From a virus, in IMG/VR virus record IMGVR_UViG_3300047157_000152, positions 1 to 64,000 of that record: a stretch of 64,000 nucleotides of DNA; one strand, 5' to 3'. This document shows positions 1,543 to 63,947 of the stretch, in pieces. Position numbers and translations under genes: made by a program. The notes under the pieces are model-generated. The model saw only the letters and a list, made by a program, of their open reading frames with translations, was not told the origin of the DNA and made no database searches. Numbering within the stretch: the first letter of the stretch is position 1; each line of letters opens with the position of its first letter.

Positions 1543-2271
1543 TTAAAGGGTTTTACTAATAAAATATTGTTTCGGATCGAAACTGTCTGTCTTATAAAAC
1601 AGATCGTAAGCCTCAACGGCTCTTTTAACCTTGTCCTGCCCTGATTCATAGAATTTAGGGGAACAGTCGTATATACCTATTTGATGAGTCTTTTTGTCTA
1701 TAACAATAAACATAAACTCATAACCAAATAGACTACTATAAATATAAGCCTGACTGTCATAATTGTACTTAGAGGCTGAATATCTAAACTTCTGAAGATC
1801 TGCTGTCGTCTTTAAATCGATGATCAGTTTTTCGTCATGGTTTACAATATCAGCCTTACCTTTCCACATTTGACCTTCAAGCTCTATAATACCAGGTTGT
1901 TCATATTCAACATTACCTGTTATTAAGCTTTTACAAACATCGTTACTCATTATTTTTTCTCTCATTAATTCTATTGAATCAACTTCATGTTGTAACAGAC
2001 ATAGCTCTCCTCCAGCTACTTCTTTGTAGGCTTTAGTATTTCTAGTAGACGATTTCACAATCTTATACTTATCAAGCTTGTTAGGCTCTAGTATTGCTGT
2101 GTGAAAATAACCACCGACTAAAAATGCAGCCGATGGTGGTGACTGTTGTCCAAGCGCTAAAGGGTTGTTTAATAAAGCTGATATATCAGAATTACTAAGG
2201 TATTGTTTACCAAAGTCTCCGTAGTAATGTTCATCAATTTTAAGCTTATCTAACACCTCTTGTTTGTTCAT
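1543..2271 (-). CDS. PD-(D/E)XK exonuclease, RecE/Cas4-like
   Basis: Nuclease that would resect double-stranded ends to supply single strands for the annealing protein encoded next to it. The 242 residues show the RecB/RecE-family signature: His57 in GGYFHTAILEP, Asp141 in GKADIV, the Asp152-x-Lys154 core in IIDLKTT, and a QxxxY motif at about 174-178. The ERF gene lies two bases upstream, a typical exonuclease/annealase pair as in lambda exo-bet or RecET. It probably takes part in repair, replication restart and exchange between phages. Confidence 0.85.
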   Translation of the reverse strand: MNKQEVLDKLKIDEHYYGDFGKQYLSNSDISALLNNPLALGQQSPPSAAFLVGGYFHTAILEPNKLDKYKIVKSSTRNTKAYKEVAGGELCLLQHEVDSIELMREKIMSNDVCKSLITGNVEYEQPGIIELEGQMWKGKADIVNHDEKLIIDLKTTADLQKFRYSASKYNYDSQAYIYSSLFGYEFMFIVIDKKTHQIGIYDCSPKFYESGQDKVKRAVEAYDLFYKTDSFDPKQYFISKTL

Positions 2272-2822: not shown

Positions 2823-3584
2823 CTACAGATAATCAAGCACTTGCGAGTGATCAACACTATCAATTAGCTTATCTACAGCTTGCTTTTTTAGCTCTGAAAC
2901 ACGTACATAAGCACTGCTTCCTTCGATGTTTAATATCTCTGCTATTTTGTTAGCCGAATGCTTTTCGCAGTCTAAACCATAGCTTAATCTTAACACATCA
3001 AACTCACGTTCATTAAGATGTCGTTTTAACAAACCAGTTAAATAAACATTTAACAAACCTATATTATAAGGCTCTGATTTGTCTGCTATTTGATAGATCA
3101 TAGACTCTTCATCGTCTTTAGGTTTTTCATCTATAGATAAAAACATACTATTAAAAAACATCGCAACCATTTTGTGGTCCTTGCCATTGTCTTTGCGTAT
3201 TTCATTTAGCTTATGTTCAGGTATTCTTATATCACCTCTATTTTTGTCAACAGCACGTCTGATACCACCTTTAATACGTTTAGACAAAAAAGACTTTAAT
3301 GTTTTTAACATATCATCTTCGTCGCCTACAACTCTAGCCCAGTCTATTCTACGTATAGCTTTAGTTAAGTTTAAGTTACCTTCTTGTATTATATCATTAA
3401 TACTCATAACACCTGAAGCTTGTTGTGTTGTAGCAAACTTACGGCCTATATTTTCTACAAGAGGTAGGAATCTATATGTTAACTGTTTCTCTGTTAGTTC
3501 ATTTAATGGTATTTCTTCATCAGGTTGACAAGCAATAACATCTTTTTTATATCTAACATAATTAGGTACGTTATATTTTTTCAT
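2823..3584 (-). CDS. Phage RNA polymerase sigma factor (sigma-70 family)
   Basis: A 253-residue sigma factor that would direct host RNA polymerase to phage promoters. Region 2 is recognisable at about 64-78 (DIIQEGNLNLTKAI, the core-binding and -10 helix). Region 4 lies at about 192-243, with LNEREFDVLRLSYGL and a helix-turn-helix (SANKIAEILNI) for -35 recognition. A basic linker (KRIKGGIRRAV) lies between. The first 14 bases overlap the upstream helix-turn-helix gene. A natural target set is the seven-copy 30-bp element at 6.5-11.35 kb; this link is an inference. Confidence 0.85.
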   Translation of the reverse strand: MKKYNVPNYVRYKKDVIACQPDEEIPLNELTEKQLTYRFLPLVENIGRKFATTQQASGVMSINDIIQEGNLNLTKAIRRIDWARVVGDEDDMLKTLKSFLSKRIKGGIRRAVDKNRGDIRIPEHKLNEIRKDNGKDHKMVAMFFNSMFLSIDEKPKDDEESMIYQIADKSEPYNIGLLNVYLTGLLKRHLNEREFDVLRLSYGLDCEKHSANKIAEILNIEGSSAYVRVSELKKQAVDKLIDSVDHSQVLDYL

Positions 3585-26475: not shown

Positions 26476-28032
26476 ATGTCAAATGCAATTGTAAAGAATC
26501 TGAGCTTTGGTTCAGATGCTAAAGATAATGTGTTTGCTGGTATTACAAAACTTACACAAGCTGTTAGCTCCACGTTAGGGGCTAGCGGCAAATGTGTTAT
26601 TCTTGAAGATACTATAGGCAAGCCAATTATCACAAAAGATGGTGTAACAGTAGCAGAGTCTGTTATATTACGAGATCCAGTAGAAAACATGGGAGCAACT
26701 TTATTAAAAGAAGCTGCTAGAAAAACTGTTAAAGAAGCTGGTGATGGTACAACAACCGCTACAGTGTTAGCACACTCTATCTTAGAAGAGGCTTATAAAT
26801 TAGAAAACGAGCTTACATCAAGAGAAATTAAAAAAGGTATTTTATCTACAACTCAAAAAGTGATTGATCACTTACAGGCAAATTCTATACCTGTACAAGG
26901 AGATATGATAGATCAAGTAGCGACAATATCAACAAACAATGACCCAGAGCTTGGTAAAATTATAGCTGATGCATTTAGGTCTGTCGGTAAAAATGGTGTT
27001 GTTGTTTTAGAACCAACTGAATTATCAGATACTACTTTTGAATTAGTAGATGGTGTTCCATATAATAGAGGTTTAAAAAATATACATTTTGTAACAAACA
27101 AAGAGTCTAAAACTGCTGAACTAGATAAACCTTTGGTTTTATTAGTTGAATCAGAAATAGAAAATATAAGAAAAATACAAAATGTTTTAGAACATGTTAT
27201 TAAAAATAACAGGTCTTTGCTTATTATAGCTGACGTTAGCCAACAAGTGTTATCAGCTTTAGCTATGAATAAAGTTAAAGGCAATATAAAAGTAAATGTA
27301 ATAGACGCGCCTGTGTACGGTATAAGTAAGAAAGAAACATTAGATGATCTTTCAATATTAACAGGAGCTACAATTATAAACGAAGATTTAGGTGATGATA
27401 TTGATTTAATAGGCCCTGAGCATTTAGGTGAAATTAAAAAAAGTGTCACTGAGCAAAACGAAACAGTTTTACATTTAATAGAAACAACTGAAGAAGTTAA
27501 GTCTATGATTAAAAAAATGGAAGATGAATTAGTTGAGTGCACTGACCCTGTATTAACTGTTAAGTTAGAAAAAAGATTAGCTAGATTATCTGCTAAAGTA
27601 GCTATTGTAAAAGTAGGTGCTAACTCTGAAGTTGAGTTGCAAGAAAAACAAGCTAGAGTTGAAGATGCTATATGTGCAACTAAAGCTGCTATCAAACAAG
27701 GTATAGTTCCTGGTGGTGGTATTGCTTTATTAAATGCGGCTAATGATATAGAAACTAGTAGTAAGTCTGAAGAAGCACTGCTAGAAGCTATTAAGGCGCC
27801 TTTTAAGACCATCTTACATAATGCAGGTATAGAACAATACGAAATGCCAAGTGTATCAGGAGATGGAATAAACGTGGTTACAGGAAATATGGTAAATATG
27901 ATTGAGTTTGGGATTATAGATCCTTTACTCGTAACAAAAAGTGCATTAAACAATGCTGCTTCTGTTGCTACTACTATTTTGTCAACCGATTGTGTAATTA
28001 ATAATCTTAGAATTGATGAAGGCAATAGGTAG
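26476..28032 (+). CDS. groEL: Chaperonin GroEL
   Basis: A 518-residue phage Hsp60. Clear family motifs: ITKDGVTVA (52-60) and GDGTTTATVLA (89-99, with the ATP-hydrolysis aspartate at 90), EDAICATKAAIKQGIVPGGG and INVVTG. The apical domain is present. It lacks the GGM-repeat tail of E. coli GroEL and is about 30 residues shorter. The co-chaperonin gene overlaps its end. It probably forms its own folding chamber for phage proteins such as the capsid; whether it works with host GroES is unknown. Confidence 0.95.
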   Translation: MSNAIVKNLSFGSDAKDNVFAGITKLTQAVSSTLGASGKCVILEDTIGKPIITKDGVTVAESVILRDPVENMGATLLKEAARKTVKEAGDGTTTATVLAHSILEEAYKLENELTSREIKKGILSTTQKVIDHLQANSIPVQGDMIDQVATISTNNDPELGKIIADAFRSVGKNGVVVLEPTELSDTTFELVDGVPYNRGLKNIHFVTNKESKTAELDKPLVLLVESEIENIRKIQNVLEHVIKNNRSLLIIADVSQQVLSALAMNKVKGNIKVNVIDAPVYGISKKETLDDLSILTGATIINEDLGDDIDLIGPEHLGEIKKSVTEQNETVLHLIETTEEVKSMIKKMEDELVECTDPVLTVKLEKRLARLSAKVAIVKVGANSEVELQEKQARVEDAICATKAAIKQGIVPGGGIALLNAANDIETSSKSEEALLEAIKAPFKTILHNAGIEQYEMPSVSGDGINVVTGNMVNMIEFGIIDPLLVTKSALNNAASVATTILSTDCVINNLRIDEGNR

Positions 28033-53681: not shown

Positions 53682-56600
53682 ATGAATTGTCAAGATAAAA
53701 AGGCAAAATTCAATTGGACTGAAGAGCAATATAACAAGTGTCTTCAAAAAGAACAATTAGAAACTCCACCAAATCAAGAACTAAACCCACTGACTGGTTT
53801 AGGTTTAGAGGTTGATATTGATATTGATGAGGCTATAAAAAATACTCCTGAAAAAAAACCAGAATTATCTTGGGGTGATAAAATTAATGCTTTAGTCAAT
53901 GTTGCCTCAGTGGGTTCTGAAATTTATGCTGATAACGAAAAGTTAAAAAATTTAGAAAATATTAATTTTGTTTCTGGTATTAATTTTGGATTAAAAGAAA
54001 GTGGTTTTGGTGAAGGAAAAAATGAGTTTTATGATCCTGCTGTTTTAAAAGAAATAGCTTCTAATTTATCTACTAATGATATAACTAAATTTACTGAAAA
54101 AGAAAACGATTTTTTTTCAAAATGGGGTTATACTGTTGCAAAAAGTGCAAGCTCTGATCCTGACTATGAGCCTTCAACTTTAGCTATATGGGATGAGGCT
54201 CGTAGATTAAAAATACTGTCGTTACAAGATGCTACAGGTGAAAAAAGTACTATTGTAGAAAATATGATAGGAAAAGATGGATTAGGGAATTTTTTTGGTG
54301 ATGTATATAGAGCTAGTAAGTCTGGTGTGGTCATGTCAGACAGTTTAGATTCTTCTTTAGAAATATTTTCTAGCGGTGGAGTTGTTGAAACTGATAAATT
54401 ACTTAAATTTTTAGAAGATCAAAAAAACAATGTTATTGCAAATAATACTTCAGACGAAATGAAAAAGTTTGAAAGTTGTTATGCTGATGCAGGCCAATCA
54501 TCTATGGGTTTTTTAAAATGTTTATATCAAAATCCAAGCGTTATATCTCAAGTAGTTGTTAATTCAGCTGTACTAAACGGTGGTGCTGTTATACAATCTG
54601 ATGAAGTAAAAAAATCAGCTATTGCTGGAACGGCTGTTGGAGCTGTTGCTGGTGGACCAACAGGTGCATTAGCTGGATTCTTTATGGCTTCTGGGTACTC
54701 TTTAGAAGCAGGTTTAAAATTTGCAGAGCTTCTTATAGCTGAAACAGGTATTGATGATGTTAATAATATCACGGTTGATGATTTACAAAAAGTTTTAAAT
54801 GATCCTGAAAAATTTGATAAAATACAAACTAAAGCTAGAAATAGAGGAATAGTTATAGGTGTTGCTAGTGGTCTTAGTGCTGGCGTTGCTAGTAAAGCTG
54901 TTTCAGGACTTGTTAAAGCTGGTAAAAGTACTCGTGTGGCTGCTGCGGTGGGTACTGGAGTTGAAGTGATAGGTGAAGGTGTTGGCGAAGCTGCTGGTCA
55001 GCTAGCGGCTGGTGAAAAAATAGACATGAAAGAAGTTTATTTTGAAATGGTTGGATCAGTAGGTAGTAAAGCTCCTGTAAGTGTTGGTGGTACTTTACTA
55101 AACTTACAACAAACTTCTACAAACATAAAAGTTGGAAGATTAGTTAAAGCGAATGGATTCACAAGTGTATCATCTGCTTTTGATCCTAACATTGAATCAA
55201 ACGAAACTCAATTAGATGTTACTAAAATACCTAATTCTGAAAAAACATTAGCTTTTGAATTAGAAAATAATATAAAAAGAAGAGTAATATCAAGAGAAGA
55301 TGCTTCTAGTGTAATGCAAAGATTTCAAGAAGTTAAAGCTACAGGTAAACAAATAGAACCTTTAAAGTTAAAAAATAAAACAGATCAAACTAAAATTATA
55401 AATCTTTTAGTAGAAAAAAAAGAACTTACTGGTGTTATAAATAAAGTTAATGATGAAAACTTAACAGAAAGTGAAGCTAAAAGAGTTGAAGCTATCAACC
55501 TAGAACTTAATGATGTAATAGCAAATTCTGAAAAAATTGAACCAGTTGCATTTAGTGAAGTAAAAGCAACAGAAACTAAATCTTCTGGATTTGAAACTAC
55601 TGAAGGTAAAAAAATAAATGATTTAGTTGGTCCTAGAAAAGAAAATGGAGAATATGATGTTACTAAAAAAGAATGGGACAGTGGAATTAGAGAAAAAGTT
55701 ATTGGTAATATATATGAAAACGAGTTATTACAGGGTTTAGTAAAAAAACAAATAACTCAAGAAATGAAAAGTTTACCTCAATTTTCAACAGAAGATTTTG
55801 TAAGCGCAACTATAACAGAATTAATACCTCATATAAGAAATTTTAATCCTGAAATAAACAACTCATTATCTGGTTGGATAAACTCTGAATTAAATAATAA
55901 AAAACTTAACGCGTTAAAAAAAGGTAAATCAGGTACGGAACAAGTGTTTACATCTGATGTGACAGAAGCTAGAAACGTTACAGACTCTGAATCCATAACT
56001 ATTGAGCAAAAAATTGATTTAAAAGATAAAGTTAAAGTTGCTGAAAATAAAGCTATTCAAAAGCTAAGGGAAGTTATAGGCGTAACACCTGAAGAAACAA
56101 AAGTTATAGGAGATAAGATAATAGGTGGAAAGATAAGAACAGAACCTGTAAAAGGTGTTTCAAATCCAGCTATGAGAGACGTTGGTAAAGCTGGTACACT
56201 TTTACAATCTGAAAAAATAATAGAGTCAATGGGTGGTAAAATTGGTACTGTTGGCAAAAATAACGATTTAGGCAATTATACAACTTTTTTAGAAGTTCAA
56301 GGTGAAGATGTTTTAACAGTATTAAATAGCGAAGATTTAAATGAAATAAAAAATACAAAGCTAAAAGATCTTTATAAACCAAAACAAGTTGATAGAGCTA
56401 GAGGTGTTCAAAACGTTAAAGGCGCTGGTAAAGGTATTTTTGAATATGAAAATGCAGAGCCTACTGTTAAAGATTTAATTACATGGGCTACGGATGATAG
56501 TTTACCTGCAACTACTAAAATAGCTAGACAGCAAACGCTAGCAGACATATTAGGTAACGCGTTAGGTAGGGTTTCTACAGTTGAAGCTGTAAAACCACTT

Positions 56601-59600
56601 AAAGATGGGGGAGTTTCAGAAGGTAGTAAAAAGTTTGTTGAAACACAAAAGCTTTTAGGCGAAGAAATAACACCGGATAAGCTTGCTAAATTTATAGCAA
56701 ATATTGATATAAAAATTAAAAGCTTAGAAAAAACTAGAAAACAAAAATACGCTGGAAGACTAGGTGTTAACGACATACCTGCTATAGTAAATAAGTCATT
56801 AATATTAGCTTTAAAGTTATTTAAAAAAGCTTTACAAAACGGAGTTAACTGGATACAAGCTTTAGGTCAAGTAACAAGAGGTTTAGCTAAGAAAAACGTT
56901 AGTGCATCAGACGTTAAAATAATACAAAAAGTTTTTCAAACTTACTTAACACCTAAACAATTGTCTGGTATAGAGCCTGTAACGCCAGAGCAATTACAAA
57001 AAGCTATTGAAGATGCTAAACTTGAGTTTAAGATGAAAAATAATGGCGATGCTTATGAAGCTGCTATTATAAAAGGATTGTTAGGTTTAGAAAAAAAAAT
57101 ACCTGGATTAGAAATAAAAACACGAGGCAAACAAGCTAATAATTTAAAAGGAGCTGATGTTGAAATGGTTGTAAACGGCGTTCCACTAAATGTAGAATTA
57201 AAAGCTATTTTTTCTGAAAGTGGCAATGTACAGTTAGGAAGTATAACTGTAAATGATTTAGAAAATCTTTTAGTTAAGAAAGCTGGTGGTTTACTTGATG
57301 CTGGTTTTCCGAAAGAAAAATTAGGAGACCTACTTAGTATAGCTGCAGGTATAGACATAAAATCTTTACAAAAACTAGCTGAATCATTTGGTTTTAAAGG
57401 AAAAGTTTTAGTAGATAAAATGCCAGAATCTATTTATAAAAAAGTTAAAAATGCAGATGGTTTAAAAAACACAAACCAACCTGATCCTAAAGGTTTTGCT
57501 GGTTTTACTATGGGTGAAATAGGTGCTATTTATAGAAGTAAAGTTCCACCAGTTCACTATATACAAATAAAAGGAAAGGGATTATATCACATGGGAGAAA
57601 ATCCTTTAAACTTAAATGTACCTGATATAAGTGCACAAAAAGTAGATTTTTATGCTAGAATAGCCTATGCGACTAGCACTAAGGATAAACAAACTGGAGA
57701 AAAAATGATTTCTTCTGTTGTTAGATTTACTCCTAGATTTGTTAAAGGAAAAGGAGGCACTTTGGATATAGAAACTTCTAAATATTCATTAGACAATCCT
57801 AAATCTTTTGCTAATCTTATAAATGATTCAAATGTTTTTGTCTTAGGTAAAGATAAGGTAAAAGCAAATTCTGTTCTTGATAAAGGAAAAGATTTTTTAA
57901 AAAACAACCCTGACGCTATACCTACAACAACGGATCCTGTGGTTTTAGATTCAGATATAAACAAAATGATTGAAGATACTAAAGGTATCAAAGCTAGATA
58001 TAAGTTTTCTGATATTGTAGCTAAAAGACGTGGCGCTGGTTTTAAGAATTTTAAAATAATACCTTCAAGTGCTCAAGACTTTAGCGGTTTAATGTATGAT
58101 TTATATAGTAAAGGTATAAAAGGCGAACAGCAACAAGAATGGGTTAAAGAAAATTTAATAAAACCATACCAAAAAGGTATTGCTGAAATAGATAGTTATA
58201 GACAGGCTTTAAAAAATGATTACTCTTCGTTACTCAAAAAATTTCCTGCTATAGCTAAGAAACTAGGTAAAACAGTGCCTGGCACAGAGTTTACTTTTGA
58301 TCAAGCTTTAAGAGTAAATTTATGGACAGAGGGTGGTTTTGAAATACCTGGTTTAGCTAAACGTGATATTAAAAAATTAAACGATATAGTTAATAAAGAT
58401 CCTGAATTAAAACTGTTTAATCAAGCTGCTATAGAAATAAGTAAAAGAGATACATGGGTTAAGCCTAGTGCTTATTGGGATTCTGAAAGTTTAATATCTG
58501 ATCTAAATAATTTAACAAATAAAGTTGGTAGAAAACAATATTTAGCTAGCTTTATAGAAAATGCTGATGTAATATTTTCTAAAGAAAACTTAAACAAAAT
58601 GGAAGTTGCTTTAGGAACTAATTGGAGAGAAGCAATGGAAGATTCTTTATACCGTATGAAGAATGGTACTAATAGACCTTCTGGAACTAACAAATTAACA
58701 AATCAATTTAATAACTGGGTTAATAATTCTGTTGGGGCAATAATGTTTATGAACGTTAAATCTGCTTTATTACAAACCATATCATCAGTTAACTTTTTAA
58801 ACTGGTCAGATAATAATCCTTATAAAGCTGCTTTAGCTTTTGGTAATCAAAAACAATACTGGTCAGATTTTGCTACATTGTGGAATTCGCCTAAGCTAAA
58901 ACAAAGAAGATCTGGTCTTAGAAAAGATGTTAATGAAGCTGAACTCGCTAACGCGGCTATAGGTGCTAAAAATAAACCGCAAGCTATATTAAGCTATTTA
59001 CTTAAAATAGGTTTCACGCCTACTCAGATGGCAGATAGCTTTGCTATTGCATCAGGTGGTGCTACATTTTATAGAAACAGAATAAACACGTTGAAAAATC
59101 AAGGTTTAGATCAAAAAGCGGCTGAAGAACAAGCATTTGAAGATTTTGCAGAAGCTTCGGATGTTGCTCAACAGTCAGCAGATCCTATGTTAATATCTCA
59201 GCAACAGGCTAGTCCACTTGGTAGATTAATATTAGCTTTTCAAAACACACCCGCTCAGGTGACTAGAATATTTAATAAATCTGCTAGAGACTTTATAAAT
59301 AATAGAGGCGATCAAAAAACAAATGTATCTAAAATGATATATTATGGTGCTGTTCAAGGTATGATATTTGCTACATTGCAAAATGCTGCATTTGCTTTAA
59401 TACCGGGTTTTGATAACGAAGAAGATGAAGAAAAGAAAAGTAAAGAGTTTGATGTAAAAGAAGAAAGAATACTTAACAGTATGGTTGATACTATGCTTAG
59501 AGGTTCTGGTGTTTATGGAGCTATTGTTTCTACATTAAAAAATACTGCTCTTACATATTATAGGGAAGAAAAGAAAGATGCTTTTAGCAAAGACCATAGA

Positions 59601-60212
59601 AACACATTGTTAGAAATATTAAATTTAAGTCCACCTGTTGGTTCTAAAGTTAGAAAAATAAACAATGCTATAAAAGCTAAAGATTACAACAAAGAGGTAG
59701 TAAAAGAGCAAGGTTGGGATGTAACCTTAAAAGGTAAGGTCAACTTAAGTCCTTCATATCAAGTTATAGCGTCACTTACAGAAGCAATAACTAATTTACC
59801 TCTTGAAAGAGCTGTAGTTGAAATTGACAGAATTGTTGAAGTTTTAGATGCTAGAAATACTACATTCCAAAGAATTGCACTTGCTTTAGGTTACAGAACA
59901 TGGGATGTAAATGCTAAAAATGAAGAAAGAGATCTTGTAAAAATAGAAGCTAAAGAAAGAAAAGAAGTTGCTAGAAAGCAAAAAGTTATAGACGATAGAG
60001 CTGAAAGAAAAAGATTAAAAGAACTAGAAAAGTATAAAGGTAAAACTAAAGATGAGATTAAGCAAATAAAACGTAGAGACTCTATAGTTGATACTAATAA
60101 ATCTGATCAAGTAAAATCTTTAATTAACTTAGGTTTGACTAAGAAAGAAATTAAAGAGCTTAAATACGAAGATGATAGAGTTAATAAAATAATTGAACTA
60201 ACAAATAAATAA
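53682..60212 (+). CDS. Giant ejection protein with nuclease-like motif
   Basis: A 2176-residue protein, the largest in the window. Gly/Ala-rich hydrophobic segments lie at about 306-331 and 388-425 (SAIAGTAVGAVAGGPTGALA; GIVIGVASGLSAGVASKAVS). Residues 1120-1176 look like a PD-(D/E)XK nuclease: GDAYEAAIIKGLLGLE, then GADVEMVVNGV and NVELKA. A large C-terminal part (about 1680-1960, VKSALLQTISSVNFLNWSDN; SFAIASGGATFYRNRINTLK) matches domains of large polyvalent phage proteins. The tail end is a Lys/Glu helix. Likely injected with DNA. It also carries copy 2 of the 36-bp repeat. Confidence 0.7.
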   Translation: MNCQDKKAKFNWTEEQYNKCLQKEQLETPPNQELNPLTGLGLEVDIDIDEAIKNTPEKKPELSWGDKINALVNVASVGSEIYADNEKLKNLENINFVSGINFGLKESGFGEGKNEFYDPAVLKEIASNLSTNDITKFTEKENDFFSKWGYTVAKSASSDPDYEPSTLAIWDEARRLKILSLQDATGEKSTIVENMIGKDGLGNFFGDVYRASKSGVVMSDSLDSSLEIFSSGGVVETDKLLKFLEDQKNNVIANNTSDEMKKFESCYADAGQSSMGFLKCLYQNPSVISQVVVNSAVLNGGAVIQSDEVKKSAIAGTAVGAVAGGPTGALAGFFMASGYSLEAGLKFAELLIAETGIDDVNNITVDDLQKVLNDPEKFDKIQTKARNRGIVIGVASGLSAGVASKAVSGLVKAGKSTRVAAAVGTGVEVIGEGVGEAAGQLAAGEKIDMKEVYFEMVGSVGSKAPVSVGGTLLNLQQTSTNIKVGRLVKANGFTSVSSAFDPNIESNETQLDVTKIPNSEKTLAFELENNIKRRVISREDASSVMQRFQEVKATGKQIEPLKLKNKTDQTKIINLLVEKKELTGVINKVNDENLTESEAKRVEAINLELNDVIANSEKIEPVAFSEVKATETKSSGFETTEGKKINDLVGPRKENGEYDVTKKEWDSGIREKVIGNIYENELLQGLVKKQITQEMKSLPQFSTEDFVSATITELIPHIRNFNPEINNSLSGWINSELNNKKLNALKKGKSGTEQVFTSDVTEARNVTDSESITIEQKIDLKDKVKVAENKAIQKLREVIGVTPEETKVIGDKIIGGKIRTEPVKGVSNPAMRDVGKAGTLLQSEKIIESMGGKIGTVGKNNDLGNYTTFLEVQGEDVLTVLNSEDLNEIKNTKLKDLYKPKQVDRARGVQNVKGAGKGIFEYENAEPTVKDLITWATDDSLPATTKIARQQTLADILGNALGRVSTVEAVKPLKDGGVSEGSKKFVETQKLLGEEITPDKLAKFIANIDIKIKSLEKTRKQKYAGRLGVNDIPAIVNKSLILALKLFKKALQNGVNWIQALGQVTRGLAKKNVSASDVKIIQKVFQTYLTPKQLSGIEPVTPEQLQKAIEDAKLEFKMKNNGDAYEAAIIKGLLGLEKKIPGLEIKTRGKQANNLKGADVEMVVNGVPLNVELKAIFSESGNVQLGSITVNDLENLLVKKAGGLLDAGFPKEKLGDLLSIAAGIDIKSLQKLAESFGFKGKVLVDKMPESIYKKVKNADGLKNTNQPDPKGFAGFTMGEIGAIYRSKVPPVHYIQIKGKGLYHMGENPLNLNVPDISAQKVDFYARIAYATSTKDKQTGEKMISSVVRFTPRFVKGKGGTLDIETSKYSLDNPKSFANLINDSNVFVLGKDKVKANSVLDKGKDFLKNNPDAIPTTTDPVVLDSDINKMIEDTKGIKARYKFSDIVAKRRGAGFKNFKIIPSSAQDFSGLMYDLYSKGIKGEQQQEWVKENLIKPYQKGIAEIDSYRQALKNDYSSLLKKFPAIAKKLGKTVPGTEFTFDQALRVNLWTEGGFEIPGLAKRDIKKLNDIVNKDPELKLFNQAAIEISKRDTWVKPSAYWDSESLISDLNNLTNKVGRKQYLASFIENADVIFSKENLNKMEVALGTNWREAMEDSLYRMKNGTNRPSGTNKLTNQFNNWVNNSVGAIMFMNVKSALLQTISSVNFLNWSDNNPYKAALAFGNQKQYWSDFATLWNSPKLKQRRSGLRKDVNEAELANAAIGAKNKPQAILSYLLKIGFTPTQMADSFAIASGGATFYRNRINTLKNQGLDQKAAEEQAFEDFAEASDVAQQSADPMLISQQQASPLGRLILAFQNTPAQVTRIFNKSARDFINNRGDQKTNVSKMIYYGAVQGMIFATLQNAAFALIPGFDNEEDEEKKSKEFDVKEERILNSMVDTMLRGSGVYGAIVSTLKNTALTYYREEKKDAFSKDHRNTLLEILNLSPPVGSKVRKINNAIKAKDYNKEVVKEQGWDVTLKGKVNLSPSYQVIASLTEAITNLPLERAVVEIDRIVEVLDARNTTFQRIALALGYRTWDVNAKNEERDLVKIEAKERKEVARKQKVIDDRAERKRLKELEKYKGKTKDEIKQIKRRDSIVDTNKSDQVKSLINLGLTKKEIKELKYEDDRVNKIIELTNK
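55032..55067 (+). repeat. 36-bp direct repeat, copy 2 (in giant protein gene)
   Basis: Differs from 29341-29376 at two bases. Encodes EVYFEMVGSVGS at about residues 451-462. Confidence 0.8.
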
Positions 60213-62005: not shown

Positions 62006-63730
62006 TTATCCGTCACAACTAAGACACGATTCGTCCATTGCTTGCTCAGCAATATCTCCACGCAACACTGACTCAGTCCGAGTATAGTATAAGGTTTTAA
62101 TACCTTTCTTCCAAGCTTCAAAATGTACTTTATTTATCCACTTAGGTGTAGCAATACTAGGAAAAGCTAAGTTTAAACTTACACTTTGATCTATATACTG
62201 CTGCCTGATACCTGCTTGATTAATTAATTCTAATTGATTAATCTCTTTAAATGTTTTAAATACATCTTTAGCTGGTATATCATTATAAGGACCAACCGTA
62301 ACTTTATTAAGTTCTTTTAGCCCTTGTACTGATCCTCCGTCTTTTAAGATTTTAGACCAAGTAGTTTCATTATTGATTTTAAGCTTCCGAAGGAGCTTAA
62401 CCAATGTGGGATTTTTACGAATGAAAGTACCTTTAGCACTTTGTTCAGTAAATACATTAGCAGCCCAAGGCTCGATACCAGGAGATACATTACCGCTAAG
62501 CTTACTGTTACTAACGGTAGGAGCAATAGCCCTAAGATGAGTATTGCGCATGCCAGTACCGACACACCAAAGAGGTTCGCCAAACTCTTCAGCAAGGGCC
62601 ATAGAGGCTCGTTCAGATTCAATTTTAATTTGTGAAAATATTTTTCTAGTTTCATATTGTGATAATAATCCTTCAAATGGTAAACCCTTTTCTTGTAAGT
62701 ACGTGTGCCAACCTAAAACGCCTAATCCTAAAGCTCTACCTTTTTCAGCAGATCTTACAGAATTATGAAATCCAACTTTACCTTTAGATCTCTGTATAAA
62801 CTCTTCTAATACACCATCTAAAAACCATATAGAGTCATGTATTAAATTAGTTCCTTTCCATTCATCATATCTAGCTAAGTTTAAACTAGATAAACAACAA
62901 ACAAAACTATGTGACTCATCTGTATGTAATGTAATTTCACTACATATGTTTGTCATATGAACTTTTAAACCGTGCTTTTTGTAAGCTGTTGGGTTATTTT
63001 TGTTTGTATTTCCCTTAAATAATATATAAGGCTCTCCAGTTGCTTTACGCTTCTGTAATAACTTTCCCCATAGTTTTCTAGCTGCAGTATCTCCGCTTTC
63101 AACTCTTCGCATAAACTTGTCGCCGACCACAGCACACTGGTGGAGGTTGAGCGACTGACGATTAACGTCTCCTTTAGGTTCTCTAATTTCAAGCCATTCT
63201 TCAAAGTCGGGGTGTTCAATATTAAGATTAACTGATGCAGCTCCTCTTCGGACAGACCCTTGATTAGTGGCAAGTATTGTTGAATCGTATATCTTACAAA
63301 AAGGCACAACGCCGTCACTTGTTCCATTTCCTTTAATTTTTGCACTAGCGGGTCTGATTTGATTTATTCCAATACCTACTCCACCGCCGTGCTTTGCGAG
63401 TAGCATCATCTCTAGGTTTTTACTACCTATATCGTATATACTGTCAGCAACATCTATACCAAAACAACTGATCGGTAAACCTCTGTCTGTACCCGTGTTA
63501 GACAACACAGGAGATGCTAGACACAGCCAACCCGACCAAATGTATTCAAAAAATTTATCGGCCATCTCAGGACGTTCTAAACGTCTAGCTACAGTTTTAC
63601 AAACTCTTTGATATGCATCCCAAGGTGTTTCACCTTTTAACAAATAGCCTCCGCCAATTGTTTTTTTATACACATCAGTGTCTCCCCACGCAGGGTAATC
63701 AACACCTTTTTTCCATTCATTATTCCACAT
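62006..63730 (-). CDS. nrdA: Ribonucleotide reductase, class I large subunit
   Basis: Makes deoxynucleotides from ribonucleotides for phage replication. With the start at ATG 63730 it has 574 residues (an earlier ATG at 63787 would overlap the upstream gene by 68 bases). Key residues are in place: Cys89 (PISCFG), Asn261-x-Cys263-x-Glu265 (TNICSEITL), AKHGGGVGIG, and the C-terminal Cys pair ESCLSCDG that regenerates the active site. There is no N-terminal ATP-cone, so allosteric activity control is probably absent. It needs a beta subunit, perhaps the gene cut by the right edge. Confidence 0.93.
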   Translation of the reverse strand: MWNNEWKKGVDYPAWGDTDVYKKTIGGGYLLKGETPWDAYQRVCKTVARRLERPEMADKFFEYIWSGWLCLASPVLSNTGTDRGLPISCFGIDVADSIYDIGSKNLEMMLLAKHGGGVGIGINQIRPASAKIKGNGTSDGVVPFCKIYDSTILATNQGSVRRGAASVNLNIEHPDFEEWLEIREPKGDVNRQSLNLHQCAVVGDKFMRRVESGDTAARKLWGKLLQKRKATGEPYILFKGNTNKNNPTAYKKHGLKVHMTNICSEITLHTDESHSFVCCLSSLNLARYDEWKGTNLIHDSIWFLDGVLEEFIQRSKGKVGFHNSVRSAEKGRALGLGVLGWHTYLQEKGLPFEGLLSQYETRKIFSQIKIESERASMALAEEFGEPLWCVGTGMRNTHLRAIAPTVSNSKLSGNVSPGIEPWAANVFTEQSAKGTFIRKNPTLVKLLRKLKINNETTWSKILKDGGSVQGLKELNKVTVGPYNDIPAKDVFKTFKEINQLELINQAGIRQQYIDQSVSLNLAFPSIATPKWINKVHFEAWKKGIKTLYYTRTESVLRGDIAEQAMDESCLSCDG

Positions 63731-63947
63731 CAGTTTCAAACTTTTTTTCTTGTTCTTTAGGTTTTTGTATCTCTTGTAGTTTATCAACTAACTCTTTCCA
63801 CGTGTCTTCACCAATATGTAATTGAAAAGATGTTAACGTACCTTTAGCCATTGAATCTACTTGTTGAAGCTTTTGTATTAAACCATTAACTACATTAGTT
63901 AACTGCTCAATCTTTTTCTTCATTAATATTAATTCATTTTCTTTCAT
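63720..63947 (-). CDS. Coiled-coil protein upstream of nrdA
   Basis: I choose ATG 63947 (MKENELILMKKKIEQLTNVV) preceded by AAATAAT; an ATG at 63971 would run into the upstream gene. About 75 residues, helical with heptads (IEQLTNVVNGLIQKLQQVDS) and an acidic/Lys tail (KPKEQEKKFETDVE). Overlaps nrdA by 11 bases. Function unknown. Confidence 0.6.
   Translation of the reverse strand: MKENELILMKKKIEQLTNVVNGLIQKLQQVDSMAKGTLTSFQLHIGEDTWKELVDKLQEIQKPKEQEKKFETDVE

What the first reader, a model, noticed from the sequence alone, without database searches (positions are those of the whole stretch)
53682..60212. Nuclease-like domain inside a giant ejection protein
Residues about 1120-1176 show E, GADVE and VELK spaced as in PD-(D/E)XK nucleases, in a protein probably injected with the DNA. 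A nuclease delivered at entry might cut host DNA or defend against other elements. Its C-terminal part resembles large polyvalent phage proteins.
Basis: inference. Interest (0 to 1): 0.6.

Follow-up and report, generated by a model that had tools for sequence, protein, structure and literature searches.

The report
Nuclease module in giant phage protein
A giant structural-type protein of a marine bacterial virus carries inside it a real DNA-cutting-enzyme domain, with its active site intact, that related viruses swap in and out at a sharp boundary; the virus may deliver this enzyme into the cell with its DNA, but that delivery is not yet shown.

Summary
The loose motif alone is at chance for this protein (36 hits versus 27±8 in shuffles), but homology rescues it. 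A profile built only from free-standing phage proteins (phrog_26930 type: P-SSM2 PSSM2_192, P-TIM40 gp181), without the window sequence, hits residues 1118-1327 at 34 bits (best of 1000 shuffles and reversed giants: 12). Across 24 sequences about 20-30% identical to the window, D1159, E1172 and K1174 are invariant. The AF2 model's top VIA-align matches are PD-(D/E)XK enzymes: HhaI (Z 8.3), Hjc, RecU, I-Ssp6803I, HinP1I, EcoRV. So: a PD-(D/E)XK nuclease domain inside a virion-module giant. In two relatives this stretch is replaced by an unrelated module; in four relatives the DNA turns abruptly 84-95% identical right behind it (window ~57,860-57,882). Other relatives show HAD-like, zincin-like, zeta-kinase or unidentified modules. 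Virion location rests on gene order and on MS/MS of the syntenic giant of phage phi18:3; ejection and target are inference. Best reading: a swappable nuclease module in a polyvalent-type virion protein, a new variant of a known kind.

The parts
53682..60212 (+). giant structural-module protein, 2176 aa
   Evidence: last long gene of the block terminase-portal-structural proteins
53682..56891 (+). N-terminal half (aa 1-1070), 41% identical in L002 and L003
54228..55058 (+). segment aa 183-459 with Gly/Ala-rich hydrophobic stretches, PHROG 32588
   Evidence: E 9.2e-28; also in giant of MW202828
55785..55925 (+). weak sigma-70 region 2-like segment, aa 702-748
   Evidence: E 0.063, below Pfam cut-off; comparable segment in relative L029, E 0.023
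57033..57821 (+). PD-(D/E)XK nuclease domain, aa 1118-1380
57057..57059 (+). E1126, helix-1 glutamate of the GxxYE motif
   Evidence: at least 90% conserved in 24 sequences
57156..57158 (+). D1159, predicted metal ligand (GADVE)
   Evidence: invariant in 24 sequences
57195..57203 (+). E1172-L-K1174, the ExK motif
   Evidence: E and K invariant in 24 sequences
57558..57596 (+). YIQIKGKGLYHMG motif, aa 1293-1305, family-specific C-terminal subdomain
57860..57882 (+). sharp mosaic junction: downstream DNA 84-95% identical in four relatives, no blastn match immediately upstream
57879..60209 (+). shared C-terminal helical domain, aa 1400-2176
   Evidence: part of it also in Gundel_1 structural protein gp074

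Best explanation
Residues about 1118-1380 form a PD-(D/E)XK nuclease domain with an intact predicted active site (E1126, D1159, E1172, K1174), built into a giant protein of the virion gene block. Shown here: the homology, the conserved active site, the predicted fold, and the exchange of this module between relatives at a sharp boundary. Inferred: the giant is packed in the particle and ejected with the DNA, as proposed for polyvalent proteins; inside the cell the domain cuts DNA in a metal-dependent way during the first minutes, and its target is host or rival-element DNA rather than a step every phage of the group needs, because close relatives lack it. Self-sparing would have to come from structure or sequence preference, since no DNA methyltransferase was found in the 67.7-kb record.
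For: A6 profile without the window hits 1118-1327 at 34.2 bits, controls at most 12.3; PHROG 26930 6e-6; profile-profile E 2.8e-8; D, E, K invariant in 24 divergent sequences. AF2 model: VIA-align best HhaI Z 8.3 over 186 residues, then Hjc, RecU, I-Ssp6803I, HinP1I, EcoRV; viral library E 1.6e-9 and 1.1e-6 to the free-standing family. Sequence profiles also find a Holliday junction resolvase at the active site, E 0.055. Virion block; MS/MS of the syntenic giant in phi18:3. Module replaced in L002/L003; junction at 57,860-57,882.
Against: The model is of middling confidence (mean pLDDT 63; core blocks 82-90; residues 104-188 poor) and no PDB Foldseek match has E below 0.1. All Z except HhaI are below 8, which can be commonplace (note). 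The phi18:3 giant known from virions is syntenic but not detectably homologous. The window protein has no zincin, HAD or other second enzyme recognised. No activity or ejection data exist.
Confidence: 0.6

Rival explanations
1. The nuclease serves the phage's own DNA metabolism or morphogenesis (genome end trimming, junction resolution, packaging) as a virion-bound structure-specific enzyme.
For: Best sequence-level PDB matches are Holliday junction resolvases of the Hjc type, and Hjc/RecU are high in the fold list.
Against: L002/L003 have the same flanking giant and structural genes but an unrelated segment in place of the domain, so the group does not need it; the free-standing homologues lie by MazG and cytidylyltransferase genes in cyanophages, not in packaging blocks.
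Confidence: 0.2
2. The domain is a catalytically dead PD-(D/E)XK fold used for DNA binding or as a structural spacer in the giant.
For: Giants of most relatives do without it; nothing shows activity.
Against: The predicted metal-binding D and E, the K and the helix Y-E are among the best conserved residues while the rest drifts to 20-30% identity.
Confidence: 0.12
3. The giant is not a particle protein but an early or late cytoplasmic factor that only happens to sit beside structural genes.
For: No MS data for this phage; the C-terminal model matches nothing known.
Against: Same gene position as giants annotated as structural in Elemovirus, phi38:1 and phi18:3 (the last by MS/MS), and a profile match to the structural protein gp074 of Gundel_1; PHROG 32588 segment shared with the giant of MW202828.
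Confidence: 0.15
4. Chance motif with no nuclease fold.
For: The loose motif alone occurs at chance level.
Against: All homology and fold tests.
Confidence: 0.04

Closest known systems
PHROG 26930, free-standing cyanophage proteins (P-SSM2 PSSM2_192, P-TIM40 gp181, S-H25, S-8S53), function unknown
   Same: GxxYE ... D ... ExK order and the YIQIxGxGLYxM subdomain; profile and fold matches
   Different: there a separate ~225-295 aa gene near mazG; here an internal module of a 2176-aa virion-block protein, about 20-27% identical
Polyvalent proteins (Iyer et al. 2017, PMC5512222)
   Same: giant multi-module proteins encoded among virion genes and thought to be injected with DNA; relatives of this one carry zincin motifs and a zeta-toxin kinase
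   Different: [quoted passage not shown] a PD-(D/E)XK DNase module is outside that description; the window protein shows only one recognisable enzyme
HhaI restriction endonuclease (PDB 6uke) and Hjc/RecU Holliday junction resolvases
   Same: predicted fold and active-site order
   Different: 8-14% identity in the structural alignments; no sequence match to HhaI; GCGC, the HhaI site, is not depleted in the window (57 versus 52 expected)
MuF polymorphic toxins of temperate phages (PMC5576092)
   Same: exchangeable effector modules on a phage particle protein
   Different: no MuF domain found here; the exchanged module is internal and the conserved part is C-terminal; lysogeny and immunity genes were not looked for

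Membership tests
PD-(D/E)XK nuclease superfamily | catalytic D and (E/D)xK after an alpha helix with an acidic residue | tested here: met
   D1159, E1172, K1174 invariant, E1126 at least 90% in 24 sequences; helix 37-53, strands 76-80 and 83-90 in the model. Geometry of the site was not measured: coordinates not available
PD-(D/E)XK nuclease superfamily | common core fold | tested here: met
   VIA-align: HhaI Z 8.3; the rows down to rank 44 are nearly all PD-(D/E)XK-type entries. Foldseek PDB E only 0.45 at best; core blocks pLDDT 82-90
PD-(D/E)XK nuclease superfamily | metal-dependent DNA cleavage | not testable with these tools
   needs an assay
PHROG 26930 family | sequence similarity over the domain | tested here: met
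Hjc-type Holliday junction resolvase | sequence or fold placing it with Hjc rather than with other PD-(D/E)XK enzymes | tested here: inconclusive
   profile E 0.055 to 7bgs, 0.41-1.4 to Hjc; Z 6.9, HhaI scores higher
HhaI/HinP1I restriction enzymes | whole-domain fold and a specific site | tested here: inconclusive
   Z 8.3 to HhaI, 5.4 to HinP1I; no sequence match; no GCGC avoidance
Polyvalent proteins | several unrelated enzymatic domains in one chain | tested here: inconclusive
   window: nuclease only; relatives: zincin motif, HAD motif, zeta kinase 4.7e-12
Polyvalent proteins | encoded among virion genes | tested here: met
Polyvalent proteins | packaged and injected with DNA | not testable with these tools
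   needs virion proteomics and a delivery assay
MuF polymorphic toxins | MuF domain with C-terminal toxin | tested here: not met
   no MuF Pfam or PHROG match; module is internal

The most novel reading that the evidence does not exclude
The middle of this giant is an exchange slot for effector modules in flavophage-like podoviruses: nuclease, HAD-like, EH-motif and other modules are swapped at a fixed boundary in front of a conserved C-terminal domain, so that each phage lineage injects its own early-acting enzyme against host or rival DNA, a counterpart of polymorphic toxins in lytic phages.
Probability: 0.35. Interest if true: 0.7.

Novelty: new variant of a known kind. Interest (0 to 1): 0.5.

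Why it matters
Early-acting proteins delivered with phage DNA are hard to recognise because they hide in giant, fast-changing chains. Here the nuclease module, its free-standing relatives and a sharp exchange boundary give a concrete, testable case: a few catalytic residues to mutate, isolates of related phages (Cellulophaga, Flavobacterium, Tenacibaculum) for virion proteomics, and a natural with/without comparison between close relatives. It also gives a fold-level assignment for PHROG 26930, listed as of unknown function.

Tried and rejected
Motif spacing as evidence: rejected, chance level. Pfam on the whole giant and on the domain: nothing above cut-off. tblastn of the whole giant and of the domain against named phages: no match, or only E near 1; one such weak match (P-SSM2) turned out real by later tests. 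C-terminal domain fold: AF2 mean pLDDT 63, nearly all helical, no significant PDB match (a missing match does not show a new fold). My early note that PHROG 32588 is the phi38:1 giant was wrong: phi38:1 has no match, MW202828 has. The HhaI lead was tested by GCGC counts: no avoidance. DNA methyltransferase for self-protection: none of three Pfam families in the 67.7-kb record (the record may be incomplete). Cellular homologues: the only genome-collection hit, in a Nonlabens assembly (L132), encodes a protein nearly identical to that of P-TIM40 amid cyanophage-like genes, probably contamination. An InPase Pfam match in one free-standing member (L096) is below cut-off. HAD and EH modules: no PDB sequence match, so these names rest on motifs only. 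Papers on ejected phage nucleases: none found with the terms tried.

Full report
What is there. ORF 53682-60212 (+) encodes 2176 aa. The window is bases 1-64000 of a 67,724-bp virus record. Terminase and portal place the phage near MW202828, Elemovirus, and the families Pervagoviridae and Pachyviridae of flavobacterial podoviruses. In MW202828, Elemovirus, phi38:1 and phi18:3 a giant gene closes the structural block; in phi18:3 the annotation of gp123 rests on MS/MS. In Gundel_1 the giant gp074 lies before the terminase. The window giant is not detectably homologous to the phi18:3, phi38:1 or Elemovirus giants, so that link is by gene order; it does share PHROG 32588 with MW202828 and a profile match in the C-terminal domain with Gundel_1 gp074, E 6e-11 in a small database.

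The motif. Their spacing alone is worth nothing: 36 loose matches in the protein versus 27±8 in shuffles.

Homology. Two relatives of the giant, L004 and L014, whose copies resemble each other closely, keep the domain at about 30% identity to the window with G, YE, D, E and K conserved. PHROG 26930 hits the domain at 6e-6; its members include free-standing cyanophage proteins such as P-SSM2 PSSM2_192 and P-TIM40 gp181. Profile-profile comparison of the giant-borne and free-standing sets gives 95%, E 2.8e-8. A viral-contig scan returned 80 loci (124 candidates) of the free-standing family. In an alignment of 24 sequences G1122, D1159, E1172, K1174, Y1284, K1287 and I1294 are invariant, and Y1125, E1126, Y1293 and Q1295 are at least 90% conserved. 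A profile of 17 free-standing sequences alone finds the window domain at 34.2 bits; 1000 shuffles and the reversed giants reach 12.3 at most. L039 and L040 probably carry a further diverged copy (phmmer E 6e-4 for L040); their rows are part of A5, so their high score against A5 is circular.

Fold. AlphaFold2 with that alignment: mean pLDDT 63, core blocks 82-90, residues 104-188 of the model poor. VIA-align 2 puts HhaI first (Z 8.3, rmsd 4.5, 186 aligned), then Hjc, RecU, I-Ssp6803I, HinP1I, NhoI and EcoRV; all but HhaI are under Z 8. Foldseek on PDB has Hjc first but at E 0.45; on viral models E 1.6e-9 to a 259-aa phage protein, 1.2e-7 to a 1475-aa viral chain, and 1.1e-6 to the P-SSM2 protein. 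Sequence profiles against the PDB give a Holliday junction resolvase (7bgs) at E 0.055, aligned on the active-site region (seen again at 0.3). Together this is a PD-(D/E)XK domain; the subfamily stays open.

Module exchange. L002 and L003 match the window over aa 1-1070 (41%) and 1388-2176 (84% and 94%), but their residues in between are unrelated to the nuclease. DNA comparison shows 84-95% identity beginning at window 57,860-57,882 in L002, L003, L004 and L014 and no blastn match immediately upstream, while the structural genes before the giant are about 68-82% identical where matched. So a mosaic junction lies directly behind the nuclease domain. Thirty-three loci share the C-terminal domain; their giants range up to 3593 aa. 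Before that domain 21 of them have a HAD-like motif (DFDDTLA ... LTARP) and most have an upstream HExxH zincin motif; L036 has a zeta-toxin/AAA_33 kinase. HAD and zincin are read from motifs only.

Mechanism. Shown: domain, conserved active site, predicted fold, exchange. Inferred: packaging, ejection, DNA cleavage at entry, target. Polyvalent proteins (PMC5512222) are the model: multidomain virion-block proteins thought to be injected with DNA. [quoted passage not shown] Because close relatives do without the domain, an essential packaging or replication role is less likely than an accessory early role against host or rival DNA. How the phage spares its own DNA is unknown: no N6/N4, C5 or D12 methyltransferase was found in the record, and GCGC, the HhaI site, is not avoided.

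Verdict. New variant of a known kind; interest 0.5.

Noticed in passing
L015-L017, L019, L023, L026, L028-L042 (IMG/VR loci), e.g. L029 from aa 2021: 21 related giants carry a HAD-like motif (DFDDTLA ... LTARP) before the shared C-terminal domain, mostly directly before it, where the window has the nuclease.
   Followed up: partly
L017-L021, L023-L026, L032, L034-L036, L042: A module with an EH motif (RYEHxxPARV or KGEH) followed by a predicted helix-like stretch precedes the HAD or C-terminal domain; no Pfam or PDB match in those tried. L011/L012 have a similar KGEHL stretch in place of the nuclease.
   Followed up: partly
L036 aa 783-951: Zeta-toxin/AAA_33 kinase domain inside a related giant (Pfam 4.7e-12 and 4.8e-13).
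   Followed up: no
window 55785-55925 and L029 aa 1230-1275: Weak sigma-70 region 2-like segment inside the giants (Pfam E 0.063 and 0.023, below cut-off).
   Followed up: no
window 2826-3584 (-): Possible sigma factor: sigma-70 region 2 and region 4 matches (E 6e-4 and 2e-4, below cut-off).
   Followed up: no
window 1546-2271 (-): A second, separate PD-(D/E)XK-like protein (DUF3799, 1.7e-24).
   Followed up: no
L004 5557-12288: The giant's reading frame in this contig is broken at several places; sequencing error or real was not resolved.
   Followed up: no
L132 (Nonlabens xiamenensis contig NZ_RMVE01000006.1): A contig filed under a flavobacterium encodes a P-TIM40-like protein amid cyanophage-like genes; probably contamination.
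   Followed up: partly
window 26476-28032 (+), 62006-63787 (-): Phage-encoded GroEL-type chaperonin (7e-58) and ribonucleotide reductase large chain (3.2e-95).
   Followed up: no
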